From Candidatus Jettenia sp. AMX2 (GTDB lineage: Bacteria; Planctomycetota; Brocadiia; Brocadiales; Brocadiaceae), in assembly GCA_030583665.1 (NCBI GenBank), contig CP129469.1, positions 1,116,001-1,180,000 on the forward strand: a DNA stretch of 64,000 nt, read 5' to 3'. Each line of letters starts with the position of its first letter. The first letter of the stretch is position 1. This document shows, in pieces, positions 25,733 through 63,615 of this stretch. The notes under the pieces were generated by a model. That model was not told the origin of the DNA, searched no databases, and saw nothing but the letters and a program-made list of their open reading frames with translations. A program made the translations under genes and the position numbers.

Positions 25733-28165
25733 ATGAGTAATAAGAGAGTATCAGTAGCAATGGCATCAGCGCTGGTGGCTGGTGCGTTGGTCTGTGGGGA
25801 AATCTTTGCGGCTAACAACCAGGTAATGACTGGCGGTTCCAAGCCGGGGAAGGCCTTATGGACAGATTATAGTGGCATGTCGAAGGAAGTGCAGGGTCCT
25901 GTAGATACGATTCTGTTTACACAGTCACCGAGGACAGAGAAGGGTGATCCGTATCACAACTATCCGCATTATGTTTCTGAGGGTAGCAGGATTGTATCAC
26001 TGAACCTGAAGACGAAGGAACTGAAGGTATTAACAGGTGATTTTGCGTCAGCGTTTGACCCATGCACCTATTGGGACGGGAAGAAGTTTACGTTTGCCGG
26101 TATTCACAAGAAGGGCGGCGGATGTCAGATCTGGGAGATGAACATTGACGGAAGTGGATTGAGGCAGATGACAGATTATAAGGGAACCTGCCGCAGTCCC
26201 ATTTATTATGCAGCGGGGAGTATCGAGGAAGGAAAGGGACGTATTATATGGCGTGACAGGTATTTTGAGGGAGACTGGAAGGAAAGAGGGACGGTAGACA
26301 AGACCGGATTCATCATTTTTGCAGGAGCTCCCGAAGGGGTGATGGACGAGTATCATCAGCCCTATGCTTACAACCTGTACCGTTTGGATACTCAGGGTGG
26401 ACATGTAACGGAGAGAATAACCGGGCATGTATTGTCAGGAATTGAGTATTCACAGTTAAATACCACGATAGATCAGATTACGTATAATTTAAGTTCGAAT
26501 TATGATCCGTGGTTAACCCCGGATGGAAACATCCTGTTTTCGAGCGTGCAGGCGAACGGTAGCAGGGCAGGCGGAGAAGGCAGGGTAATGCTTTGTGTGG
26601 ACAACTGGGATGGTGCATATCCAAGGCATATATTTGGGAATTATGATGATAGTATTGGAGGGACATGCGGGAGATCGCAGGCCAAGATAACCTTTGGAGA
26701 CAGGAAGATTGTCTTTGTTGAGTCACCATACAGGAATTGGGGTGTAGGGCAGCTGGCAGCAGTGAGCTGGGATGCTCCGTTCAACAAGACCTATGAGAGG
26801 GTAAACAAGGATGAAGGCGGGTTGTACCGGAGTCCGTATCCGCTTCCGGATGACAGGATGCTGGTATCGTATGCATCCCGTGGTGATTTTGGGATATACT
26901 GGTTTGATTTTAAGAATTGCCGTGCCGGTGAGTTGGTGTATGATGATCCGGAGTGGAACGAGCACCAGCCAGCCCCTGTATATACGAAGTACAGGCCAAG
27001 GTGGATCAACACCTTTACGGCAGGTAAGGATTTTGGGGTGACGGTAGTTACCTATCAGCCGTTTGATCAGGTGAAGGTGGAAGGGTATCCGCATTCCTGG
27101 GGAACCTGGATTTGTTTTGACACGACGTTAACGCAGGCACCGGTAGGTCCCTATCCGCACCAGAGGGCGAAGGTAACAAAGCCTGGTGATATAAAGGCGG
27201 TAAGGATTATTCAGGGAGTACCGTGCGTTGAGCCGGATGCATCACGTTTCAAAGCAGGAGCGGGAAGTCATCTTCTGGGAGGAGCCAGGTCAAGCACGAA
27301 TTCCGGGACGGCGTTTCAGCAGAGGAAGATCATTGGATATCAGTATGTAGAGGATGATGGTTCAGTGGTAACATCCCAGGTATCCGATACTCCGTATTAC
27401 ATCCAGAATCTGGATGAGAGGGGGATGGCGGTACAGTCTGCACTGATGTGGGCATATTTAAGGCCATATCATGGGAGGATATGTAGTGGATGTCATGACG
27501 GTTCGTATTCAGGAAGGGCATTCCAGAATCAGCATACGAAGGCGTTGTACAACTGGTGGTATGATGACAGGAGTCACTATGATTCACCTTTTGCATTTGC
27601 ATACATAAAGTTTGACAAGCAGGGAATTTATCAAGGTGTAAAGCACGGGGATGATGTTGTGGTACCGTCAGACGTATATTATGGTGGTCCGTCAGGAACG
27701 ACGTCCCAGCCGGTGGAAGGGTTAACGGAGGAGAAGAGAAGGACGGTGGATTTCAGGAGGGACATTCAGCCGATTATAGATGCGAAGTGTGCGAAGTGTC
27801 ATGATGCAAACAATCCGCCGGAGTTGACAGGTGGTGCAGAGCCAGTTAACGTTGATGGGATAGCGGCATTCAGCAGGGCATACAACAGCCTGCTGGTCCC
27901 ACAGAGGGGCAAGGATCCGAACATTGGTGGCAAGTATGTAAATCCGTCAGCGGCCATCAACAGCTTGCTTGTCTGGAGGTTATATGAAGAGCCGTTAAGT
28001 CAGTTTACGCCGAAGGAAGACGTATTTCCGAAGGAAGGCCGGGTGTTGCATGATAAGTTCCTTACCCAGGAAGAAAGGTATATGATTGTAGAATGGATTG
28101 ACATTGGTGCACAATGGGATAACATTCAGGGGCCTGACTTCTATGCAGGGTATCGGGGAAGGTAA
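25733..28165 (+). CDS. hzsA: Hydrazine synthase alpha subunit
   Basis: 810 residues from the ATG at 25733, downstream of AAAGGAGA; a 7-residue longer start at 25712 has no ribosome site. A signal peptide is followed by a large propeller-like region. Two haem sites lie near the C-terminus: CSGCH (Cys584) and CAKCH. The tyrosine eight residues after Cys584 (CSGCHDGSY, Y592) corresponds to the unusual Tyr591 haem-iron ligand described for Kuenenia kuste2861, whose numbering differs by one. This is the catalytic subunit proposed to join hydroxylamine and ammonia to hydrazine. It is the last gene of the unit, with a strong terminator 56 bp after the stop. Confidence 0.97.
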   Translation: MSNKRVSVAMASALVAGALVCGEIFAANNQVMTGGSKPGKALWTDYSGMSKEVQGPVDTILFTQSPRTEKGDPYHNYPHYVSEGSRIVSLNLKTKELKVLTGDFASAFDPCTYWDGKKFTFAGIHKKGGGCQIWEMNIDGSGLRQMTDYKGTCRSPIYYAAGSIEEGKGRIIWRDRYFEGDWKERGTVDKTGFIIFAGAPEGVMDEYHQPYAYNLYRLDTQGGHVTERITGHVLSGIEYSQLNTTIDQITYNLSSNYDPWLTPDGNILFSSVQANGSRAGGEGRVMLCVDNWDGAYPRHIFGNYDDSIGGTCGRSQAKITFGDRKIVFVESPYRNWGVGQLAAVSWDAPFNKTYERVNKDEGGLYRSPYPLPDDRMLVSYASRGDFGIYWFDFKNCRAGELVYDDPEWNEHQPAPVYTKYRPRWINTFTAGKDFGVTVVTYQPFDQVKVEGYPHSWGTWICFDTTLTQAPVGPYPHQRAKVTKPGDIKAVRIIQGVPCVEPDASRFKAGAGSHLLGGARSSTNSGTAFQQRKIIGYQYVEDDGSVVTSQVSDTPYYIQNLDERGMAVQSALMWAYLRPYHGRICSGCHDGSYSGRAFQNQHTKALYNWWYDDRSHYDSPFAFAYIKFDKQGIYQGVKHGDDVVVPSDVYYGGPSGTTSQPVEGLTEEKRRTVDFRRDIQPIIDAKCAKCHDANNPPELTGGAEPVNVDGIAAFSRAYNSLLVPQRGKDPNIGGKYVNPSAAINSLLVWRLYEEPLSQFTPKEDVFPKEGRVLHDKFLTQEERYMIVEWIDIGAQWDNIQGPDFYAGYRGR

Positions 28166-60826: not shown

Positions 60827-62371
60827 ATGGATAATAACATTATAATTTTTGATACGACCCTTCGCGATGGAGAGCAATCACCTGGAGTTAGCCTTGGTAT
60901 TAATGAGAAAGTTAAGATTGCGAGGCAGCTGGCACTGTTGAATGTAGATATTATTGAGGCAGGATTTCCTGTTTCATCACCAGGTGATTTTGAATCGGTA
61001 AAAAGGATTGCCCAGGATGTAAAGGGGGTTACTGTGGCAGGCCTTGCCCGGGCTGTTGAAAAGGATATTGATAGTGCTGTCAGGGCACTTGAGAAGGCAG
61101 AAAAACCACGGGTTCACATCTTTTTAGCCACTTCTGAAATACACAGGAAATACAAGTTACTGAAAGCCAAAGAAGAAATTATTCATTTGGCGGTGAAAGG
61201 GGTAACGTATGCCCGAAAGTATGTGGATGATATAGAATTTTCACCGGAGGATGCATCAAGAACTGAATTGGACTTTCTTGTCCAGGTAGTAGAGGCTGTT
61301 ATTGATGCCGGTGCGAGGACGGTTAATATTCCCGATACCGTAGGCTATGCTGTTCCGGATCAGTATGCTTTTCTTATCAGGGGATTGAAAGAGCATGTGA
61401 AAAATATTGACAGGGCAATACTGAGCGTACACTGCCATAATGATCTCGGACTCGCCGTTGCCAATTCTCTGGCTGCGGTAAAAGCTGGCGCAAAGCAAGT
61501 TGAGTGTACGATAAATGGAATTGGTGAAAGGGCAGGGAATGCCGCCATGGAAGAGGTTGTTATGGCTCTGAAAACCCGGCATGATTTTTACCATTGTTCT
61601 ACGCGGATTTTCACAAAAGAATTAATTGCAACAAGTAAACTAGTAAGTAGCTTGTCAGGACTGCGAGTGCAGAGAAATAAGGCTATTGTTGGTGAAAATG
61701 CATTTGCGCATCAATCCGGGGTTCATCAGGACGGGGTGCTCAAGGAGCGTACGACTTACGAGATTATGAAGCCGGAGGATGTTGGACACCTGAAAACAAA
61801 GATTGTACTTGGAAAATTATCAGGGCGGCATGCCCTCAAAAAGCGGATTAAAGAATTGGGATATGAGCTGACTGAAGAAGAATTCGAAAGGGCTTTTGAG
61901 GAATTTAAACGTATTGCCGACAAAAAGAAGGAGGTATTTGATGAAGATATTGAAGCCATTGTTGGTATTGAAAAAATGGATGTTCCTGATATTTTTCATT
62001 TAAAAAGTCTGAGTATTAGTTGCGGGCCAAATACAGTACCGACTGCCAGTGTACGGCTTAAGCTGCAGGATGGTCGCTTCGTGGACAATGCTACCATAGG
62101 TGATGGTCCCATTGATGCACTTTTTAAGGCTATAGATCTGTCAACAGGGATTCCCGGCAAACTGCAGGATTACAATATTCACGCCGTCACAAGCGGGAAG
62201 GATGCTATGGGAGAAGTTCATGTAAGTATTGATGTTGATGGGAAGATCATAGGGGGACGTGCGGTAAGTACCGATATTATTGAAGCAAGCGCAATGGCCT
62301 ATTTAAATGCAATAAACAGAGTTGCTGCAACTAATCCAAAGTACGCAGTCCATAAGCAGGGCATAGCATAG
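60827..62371 (+). CDS. leuA: 2-isopropylmalate synthase
   Basis: 514 residues from the ATG at 60827 (GAGGATAAAG upstream). DRE-TIM metallolyase with IFDTTLRDGEQSPGVSL, the metal-binding HCHNDLGLAVANSLAA and HQSGVHQDG, and the C-terminal LeuA allosteric domain (from about residue 375, TVPTASVRLKLQDG). It condenses 2-oxoisovalerate with acetyl-CoA in leucine synthesis. Full length for LeuA. Homocitrate and citramalate synthases are relatives, but the overall sequence is LeuA-like. Confidence 0.94.
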   Translation: MDNNIIIFDTTLRDGEQSPGVSLGINEKVKIARQLALLNVDIIEAGFPVSSPGDFESVKRIAQDVKGVTVAGLARAVEKDIDSAVRALEKAEKPRVHIFLATSEIHRKYKLLKAKEEIIHLAVKGVTYARKYVDDIEFSPEDASRTELDFLVQVVEAVIDAGARTVNIPDTVGYAVPDQYAFLIRGLKEHVKNIDRAILSVHCHNDLGLAVANSLAAVKAGAKQVECTINGIGERAGNAAMEEVVMALKTRHDFYHCSTRIFTKELIATSKLVSSLSGLRVQRNKAIVGENAFAHQSGVHQDGVLKERTTYEIMKPEDVGHLKTKIVLGKLSGRHALKKRIKELGYELTEEEFERAFEEFKRIADKKKEVFDEDIEAIVGIEKMDVPDIFHLKSLSISCGPNTVPTASVRLKLQDGRFVDNATIGDGPIDALFKAIDLSTGIPGKLQDYNIHAVTSGKDAMGEVHVSIDVDGKIIGGRAVSTDIIEASAMAYLNAINRVAATNPKYAVHKQGIA

Positions 62372-62545
62372 TATGACAAGTAGTTCCTTTGCATTTTGAA
62401 AAAATAAAAAAGATATATTATCGGCAAAGCACCCGATAATTTCATTATATACTCAAATGGCAGTATAATAAGTCACCAGTAAACATATGTATTAGTATCT
62501 ACTAATAGTTGTAAAATAAGATGGTTATCTTAGTACTCCTAATTT

Positions 62546-63483
62546 GTGTCAGGGTTGGAAAGGCTCAAAGCATGGGAAAAACCAGTCTTAGTATTTATCA
62601 GTCATTCTTCAGAGGACAAAGAGTTATACATTAAACCAATCGTTTCCGAGTTGAATAGCTGTGGTATCGAGGTATGGATAGATAACCAAAGAATATTGCC
62701 AGGGTATGACTTGTGGGAATCAATTCGTGAAGGCCTGGATAGGGCAGATATGTATTGCTATTTTTTACAGAACATTCATTGCAGTCTAAATGGGTAGATC
62801 AGGAAATTAAGCATATATTAAGGAGGGAAAACTTAAAGAAGGGAAATGGCTTTGGCCTAAATAAAGTAATATCAATATACGATTCTCAAGATACATACAA
62901 TGCAATTAACGAACAATACCCTAAGCTTACAGATAAACTGTTTCATTTTATGCCGAGAGACTATGATAAGATCCAGTTGGGACGATTAATCTCTGCAATT
63001 TGGTCAAAGTACTTTTCACTAAATGAATTATTTGTCAAGAATAAGAAACCATTAGGAGTTGATACCTCAACATTTGGACTAACACCAACCGTTAATCCAA
63101 CTTCAGAAACCGATCCCTCCCATCTCAGGGAGAGTCTGTCAAAGTACCTTGAGGGCTATAATGCATTGTCGGAGTTATGGTGGGAACAGGAGAAATACGT
63201 CCAAAACTCCTCTGGTAAGCTATTGGACTGGCAAGCATTTGTGCAGGAAATTGGAGAGAGGTGTTTACTTATTGCGCCAAGTACTTCTGTAGCAGCACCA
63301 TCCGGTCAAGGGGAAAGTAATGCCATGTACGCATGTTTTCCTGACTCGATAATAAAAGATATTGATAATTTTAACAGAGAGATATTGTTCAAATTCAAGG
63401 TACTATTGCATTTAATGGTGAGTATCTACCAGGATATGTTATCATTAGAAGAATCAAGAAAATTAAAGCTGATGAATGACTAA
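62546..63483 (+). pseudogene. TIR-domain protein gene interrupted by a -1 frameshift
   Basis: Two overlapping frames together encode one protein of about 310 residues. Frame one (from GTG 62546) holds the start of a TIR domain (VLVFISHSSEDKELYIKPIV, GIEVWIDNQRILPGYDLWES, EGLDRADMY) and ends at a stop at 62795-62797. The -1 frame continues the domain with TEHSLQSKWVDQEIKHIL and an unrecognised C-terminal part of about 200 residues (to 63483). The switch point coincides with a T-TTT-TTA heptamer in the correct phase (62761-62767), so the interruption may be programmed frameshifting, a lost T, or a sequencing error. TIR proteins of bacteria commonly act in anti-phage defence through NAD or cyclic-nucleotide chemistry; no partner gene is visible. 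Confidence 0.75.
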
Positions 63484-63615
63484 ACAAACTTCAGCAATAC
63501 CTTAGAAGAATGATGTTTTTTCTCAGCCTCCACCTCCAAACAAAGAGCCGCAAATAGGCAAACTTACACCCTTAAACTGTTTCATTTATTAATTGGAAAA
63601 TAGTCCACTATTGTT

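What the first reader, a model, noticed from the sequence alone, without database searches (positions are those of the whole stretch)
62546..63483. TIR gene split exactly at a T-TTT-TTA slippery heptamer
The zero frame reads tat-ttt-tta across 62761-62767, the X-XXY-YYZ phase needed for -1 slippage and the same heptamer used by HIV-1. A -1 shift there restores the TIR fold (CYFL then TEHSLQSKWV). The alternative is a T7-to-T6 homopolymer error or loss of function by a one-base deletion. If programmed, the system would make a truncated and a full-length TIR protein.
Basis: partly seen in the sequence, partly recalled or inferred. Interest (0 to 1): 0.6.

Follow-up and report, generated by a model that had tools for sequence, protein, structure and literature searches.

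The report
Broken TIR gene behind integron site
In an anammox bacterium, a TIR-type (probably anti-phage) gene is interrupted by what looks like an ordinary one-base frameshift at a short run of T rather than a programmed signal, and it appears to have been captured next to a leftover integron insertion site whose integrase gene is gone.

Summary
The sequence observation is right. A TIR gene is split between two frames (62546-62797 and 62743-63483). An in-phase T-TTT-TTA lies at 62761-62767, and a -1 shift there joins a 312-aa protein whose TIR half aligns without gaps to solved bacterial TIR proteins.

The programmed-frameshift reading is not supported. Downstream RNA folds no better than shuffled sequence. 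All 24 TIR relatives aligned are open across the junction and none has an in-phase heptamer there. UUA-ending heptamers are poor shifters in E. coli. The short product would end inside the WxxxE catalytic motif. No orthologue with the same C-terminus was found. A one-base indel (or base-calling error) at the T-run is simplest.

Context gave the more useful result. leuA and aroDE adjoin in all 16 family members where both were seen; only this genome has a 1244-bp insert between them. The insert starts with a ~140-bp block present six times in this genome and in many relatives. In 11 of 20 fetched copies an integron-integrase fragment lies within about 330 bp upstream. Conservation stops at a G|TTRRRY-type crossover and unrelated genes follow. 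The block is most likely an orphan integron attI, with the TIR gene as its decayed first cassette.

The parts
60827..62371 (+). leuA (2-isopropylmalate synthase), left flank of the insert
   Evidence: 79-90% identical in family members; adjoins aroDE in all 16 where both were seen; function named from sequence, own knowledge
62372..63615 (+). 1244-bp insert between leuA and aroDE, absent from relatives
   Evidence: synteny comparison; the TIR gene has no other copy in 59 relatives
62378..62554 (+). orphan integron attI-like block with intI leader; blast match 62410-62553
   Evidence: 79% identical to the block consensus over its length, E 1.4e-27; aligned back to about the intI start codon in L105/L110; IntI fragments beside 11 of 20 other copies
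62548..62554 (+). degenerate crossover core GTCAGGG (consensus GTTRRRY), recombination point after 62548
   Evidence: conservation among 16 copies falls from 0.88 to 0.46 to 0.28 at this point
62546..62797 (+). TIR gene, first half, zero frame (83 aa, GTG start)
   Evidence: TIR_2 E 5e-12; ORF
62761..62767 (+). T-TTT-TTA heptamer at the frame change (T-run 62761-62766)
62743..63483 (+). TIR gene, second part, -1 frame: end of the TIR domain and an orphan C-terminal region
   Evidence: open frame; no family match for the C-terminal part
62791..62805 (+). WVDQE, the WxxxE motif with the NADase glutamate, downstream of the break; the zero-frame stop lies inside it
   Evidence: alignment with AbTIR and 24 relatives; motif from PMC11374754
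63616..64000 (+). aroDE (3-dehydroquinate dehydratase / shikimate dehydrogenase), right flank, continues beyond the window
   Evidence: 63-71% identical in family members; function named from sequence, own knowledge

Best explanation
A horizontally acquired single TIR gene that has lost its frame. SHOWN: a one-frame break at a T-run splits the TIR domain; the insert lies between two genes that adjoin in every relative where both were seen; it begins with a repeat that lies next to integron integrases elsewhere and ends at a GTTRRRY-type crossover. INFERRED: an integron entered between leuA and aroDE and held the TIR gene as its first cassette behind attI, then decayed: the integrase gene was lost, the crossover core mutated, and the TIR frame broke by a one-base indel in the T-run (a base-calling error cannot be excluded). 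When intact the protein was most likely an NAD-cleaving, probably anti-phage TIR effector. As the sequence stands, translation should give an 83-aa fragment without the catalytic motif and at most traces of full-length protein.
For: Gap-free TIR alignment across the junction. Relatives open at the junction without heptamer, 24 of 24. No downstream structure. leuA-aroDE adjacency in 16 relatives. Block repeated six times in this genome and present in 24 of 59 genomes searched. IntI fragments upstream of 11 of 20 copies, nine of them divergent and within 51-121 bp, matching TIGR02249. Similarity ends at G|TT. Unrelated genes behind the copies. attC-like hairpins near two other copies in this genome and near an intact IntI in a relative, none in 400 kb elsewhere.
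Against: No attC recognised behind the TIR gene, so cassette status is inferred from its place only. Window core departs from GTTRRRY. The two strongest IntI genes of this genome lie on stretches without the block. The second frame has kept about 240 codons without a stop, so decay is recent or the break is a sequencing error.
Confidence: 0.8

Rival explanations
1. Programmed -1 ribosomal frameshifting at T-TTT-TTA makes a truncated and a full-length TIR protein.
For: Heptamer is in phase and is the only one in the 55-nt overlap (TTTTTTA expected in 0.5% of such stretches). The second frame is long and open.
Against: No stimulatory structure; relatives open, no heptamer; UUA-ending motifs are poor in E. 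coli (PMC4066793); the short product lacks WxxxE and half the fold.
Confidence: 0.05
2. The break is a base-calling or assembly error at the T-run and the gene is intact and working in the cell.
For: Break falls on a homopolymer, and the rest of both frames is open. Singletons of this sort are often errors (PMC3711429).
Against: Homopolymer counts are like those of relatives; at most one other frameshift candidate in 43 kb of comparable coding DNA; the neighbouring attI is itself decayed.
Confidence: 0.3
3. The ~140-bp block is not attI but some other dispersed repeat (mobile leader or promoter element) that happens to lie beside integrase remnants.
For: About half of the fetched copies have no integrase fragment. 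It holds an inverted repeat TACTAATAGCCGT...ACGGCTATTAGTA. The two strongest IntI genes of this genome do not have it beside them.
Against: IntI N-termini 51-121 bp upstream and divergent in nine of 20 copies, abrupt end of similarity at G|TT and unrelated genes beyond are what attI predicts.
Confidence: 0.1

Closest known systems
Chromosomal integrons (intI - attI - gene cassettes)
   Same: Block lies divergently next to intI in many copies, ends at a GTTRRRY-type core, unrelated genes follow
   Different: In the window intI is gone, the core is degenerate and no attC was found; several attI copies lie scattered in one genome
Integron-borne anti-phage cassettes of Vibrio and of mobile integrons (reviewed in PMC12409362)
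   Same: A defence-type gene in first-cassette position
   Different: Anammox planctomycete, single gene, frame broken; defence activity not tested
Bacterial TIR NADases such as AbTIR (8g83, 7uwg)
   Same: TIR domain with WxxxE; gap-free alignment across the junction
   Different: Own C-terminal region of about 170 aa with no relative found; coding frame broken
Programmed -1 frameshift genes (HIV-1 gag-pol motif; dnaX and IS elements in bacteria)
   Same: In-phase slippery heptamer at the frame change
   Different: No stimulator, no conservation in relatives, short product lacks the active site, motif poor in bacteria

Membership tests
Programmed -1 frameshift gene | Slippery heptamer in phase at the frame change | tested here: met
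   T-TTT-TTA 62761-62767
Programmed -1 frameshift gene | Stimulatory RNA structure downstream | tested here: not met
   z +0.6 to +1.9 in four windows; pseudoknots were not modelled
Programmed -1 frameshift gene | Site conserved in homologues | tested here: not met
   0 of 24 relatives have it and all are open; no orthologue was available
Programmed -1 frameshift gene | Both products made | not testable with these tools
   needs proteomics or a reporter
Bacterial TIR NADase | TIR fold by sequence | tested here: met
   TIR_2; joined protein against PDB TIRs
Bacterial TIR NADase | WxxxE motif in a translated frame continuous with the rest of the domain | tested here: not met
   WVDQE is present but beyond the frame break
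Bacterial TIR NADase | NAD cleavage | not testable with these tools
   needs an enzyme assay
Integron | Integron integrase gene next to the site | tested here: not met
   absent in the window; present or as a remnant at 11 of 20 other copies of the block (TIGR02249)
Integron | attI with GTTRRRY crossover core | tested here: inconclusive
   the block fits but the window core is GTCAGGG; recombination not tested
Integron | attC at the 3' end of the cassette | tested here: inconclusive
   none recognised behind the TIR gene with a simple scan; attC-like sites exist elsewhere in the genome

The most novel reading that the evidence does not exclude
Anammox bacteria carry many dispersed, often integrase-less attI sites, each with a single captured gene behind it, some of them defence genes such as this TIR: a scattered form of integron in which attI copies, rather than one attC array, are spread through the chromosome.
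Probability: 0.35. Interest if true: 0.5.

Novelty: new member of a known kind. Interest (0 to 1): 0.3.

Why it matters
The frameshift itself is ordinary. The context suggests how a lone TIR gene can arrive between two housekeeping genes of an anammox bacterium: through an integron platform that later lost its integrase. If confirmed, this would extend integron-borne defence, so far shown in Vibrio and mobile integrons, to planctomycetes known mainly from enrichments, and gives a ~140-bp marker (the attI block) with which captured genes could be found across anammox genomes.

Tried and rejected
Orthologues with the same C-terminus: none in 59 relatives, two scans of the species-genome collection, viral contigs, plasmids with the C-terminal part (one ABC-transporter match at E 0.7), phages, 392 genomes of the phylum or 75 of the class; only distant TIR domains came up. 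Family libraries gave nothing convincing for the C-terminus. A stimulatory structure was rejected on energy. Rfam: nothing at the insert. A homopolymer break at 1060175 in this genome was not counted as a frameshift: the region differs from its relative by more than the run and looks non-coding on that strand. A restart at ATG62846 behind AAGGAGG (62820-62826) was rejected because that ATG is not in the second frame (sequence). attC behind the gene: none found.

Full report
What was claimed and what is there. The window is base 1,116,001-1,180,000 of a single 3.46-Mb contig. The genome carries hydrazine synthase, so the organism is an anammox bacterium; the species was not determined. The claim about the sequence holds: codons tat-ttt-tta at 62761-62767, a zero-frame stop at 62795-62797, and an open -1 frame from 62743 to 63483. 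The first half alone matches Pfam TIR_2 over profile positions 1-58 of 122. The joined 312-aa reading aligns without a gap through the junction with solved bacterial TIR proteins including AbTIR.

Is the heptamer more than chance? In 88,628 codons of long ORFs from 400 kb of this genome, 0.8% of positions are in-phase XXXYYYZ. A 55-nt overlap holds one with probability 11.6%, and TTTTTTA with probability 0.5%. The second number looks small but is not the right test: one-base losses favour homopolymer runs, and a loss in a T-run followed by A leaves TTTTTTA in the correct phase by construction (inference).

Programmed frameshifting. Three tests failed. First, RNA downstream of the site folds no better than shuffled sequence (z +0.6, +1.2, +1.6, +1.9). 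Second, 24 TIR reading frames, all but one from genomes of the phylum and one from a Bradyrhizobium plasmid, read openly through the junction when aligned to the joined protein, and none has an in-phase heptamer there. They are distant (roughly 26-40% identity), so this tests the family and not orthologues. Third, measured motif rules for E. coli put heptamers ending in a mixed codon such as UUA below those ending in uniform codons, and without a stimulator heptamers stay within about tenfold of a 0.055% background (PMC4066793). In addition, the stop of the short product lies inside the codons for WVDQE, the WxxxE motif whose glutamate is needed for NADase activity in most bacterial TIRs (PMC11374754), so the short product would be half a fold without its active site.

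Error or mutation? Homopolymer length counts of this genome resemble those of three relatives. In 43 kb of coding DNA with homologues in hand, at most one other frameshift candidate appeared. An error-ridden assembly is therefore unlikely, but a single error cannot be excluded. The second frame has kept about 240 codons free of stops, so if it is a mutation it is recent.

The surroundings. leuA and aroDE lie next to each other, within about 190 bp, in all 16 family members where both could be seen, including the other genome of the genus. Only here are they 1244 bp apart. The TIR gene is therefore an insertion in this lineage; the insert has 36% G+C against 44% in both flanking genes.

What brought it. 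A DNA search with the insert found no other copy of the gene, but its first ~140 bp occur six times in this genome and in 24 of the 59 genomes searched, this one included. I fetched 20 copies. In nine, an N-terminal fragment of an integron integrase lies 51-121 bp upstream and divergent; two more have IntI fragments within about 330 bp. The integrase matches TIGR02249. Mean pairwise identity among 16 copies is 0.75-0.88 per 10-bp step up to ...TTCATG, then drops to 0.46 and 0.28 right after the G of the GTTRRRY-type core. The genes behind the copies are unrelated to each other: exonuclease, DNA methylase, TspO, GNAT acetyltransferase, DUF2442, protein kinase, HNH endonuclease. That is the anatomy of attI with a first cassette. 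The window copy aligns with the others back to about the intI start codon, but intI itself is gone and the leuA stop stands in its place. Its core is degenerate, GTCAGGG, and the TIR reading frame begins at it. No attC was recognised behind the TIR gene, although attC-like hairpins occur near other block copies in this genome and near an intact integrase in a relative.

How it most likely works. Inferred: an integron inserted between leuA and aroDE, held the TIR gene as first cassette, and then decayed (integrase lost, core mutated, frame broken). The intact ancestor would have been an NAD-cleaving TIR effector, plausibly anti-phage. Integrons in Vibrio and mobile integrons are known to carry such defences (review PMC12409362). 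Decay of integrons is common: nearly a third of intI genes were pseudogenes in one survey (PMC2426708), and intI genes in Planctomycetes and in Kuenenia have been reported (PMC2426708, PMC3607928). What is new here is modest: the TIR example, and the dispersed, often integrase-less attI copies in anammox genomes.

Noticed in passing
window 62410-62552; G000:C1 882617, 1788598, 1860788, 1825925, 1830698; L105-L124: A ~140-bp integron attI-like block with a conserved inverted repeat is dispersed in six copies in this genome and in many relatives, often with only a short integrase remnant or none.
   Followed up: yes
L151 (G000:C1 1828631-1828690 and 1838329-1838426): Two attC-like hairpins lie near two truncated attI-like blocks: probably a small cassette region without an integrase.
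   Followed up: partly
L001 (G000:C1 3331327-3332682): The only other TIR_2 gene of this genome (298 aa, unrelated outside the domain) lies next to a broken integron integrase, on the same strand.
   Followed up: partly
window 27185-27499 and G000:C1 383159-383473: The hydrazine synthase alpha domain (PF18582) occurs twice in the genome with the same score, once in this window: a duplicated hzs gene.
   Followed up: no
G000:C1 about 1193189 (L064 about 13190): A possible second frameshifted gene relative to two family members (140-aa homologue split between two frames).
   Followed up: no
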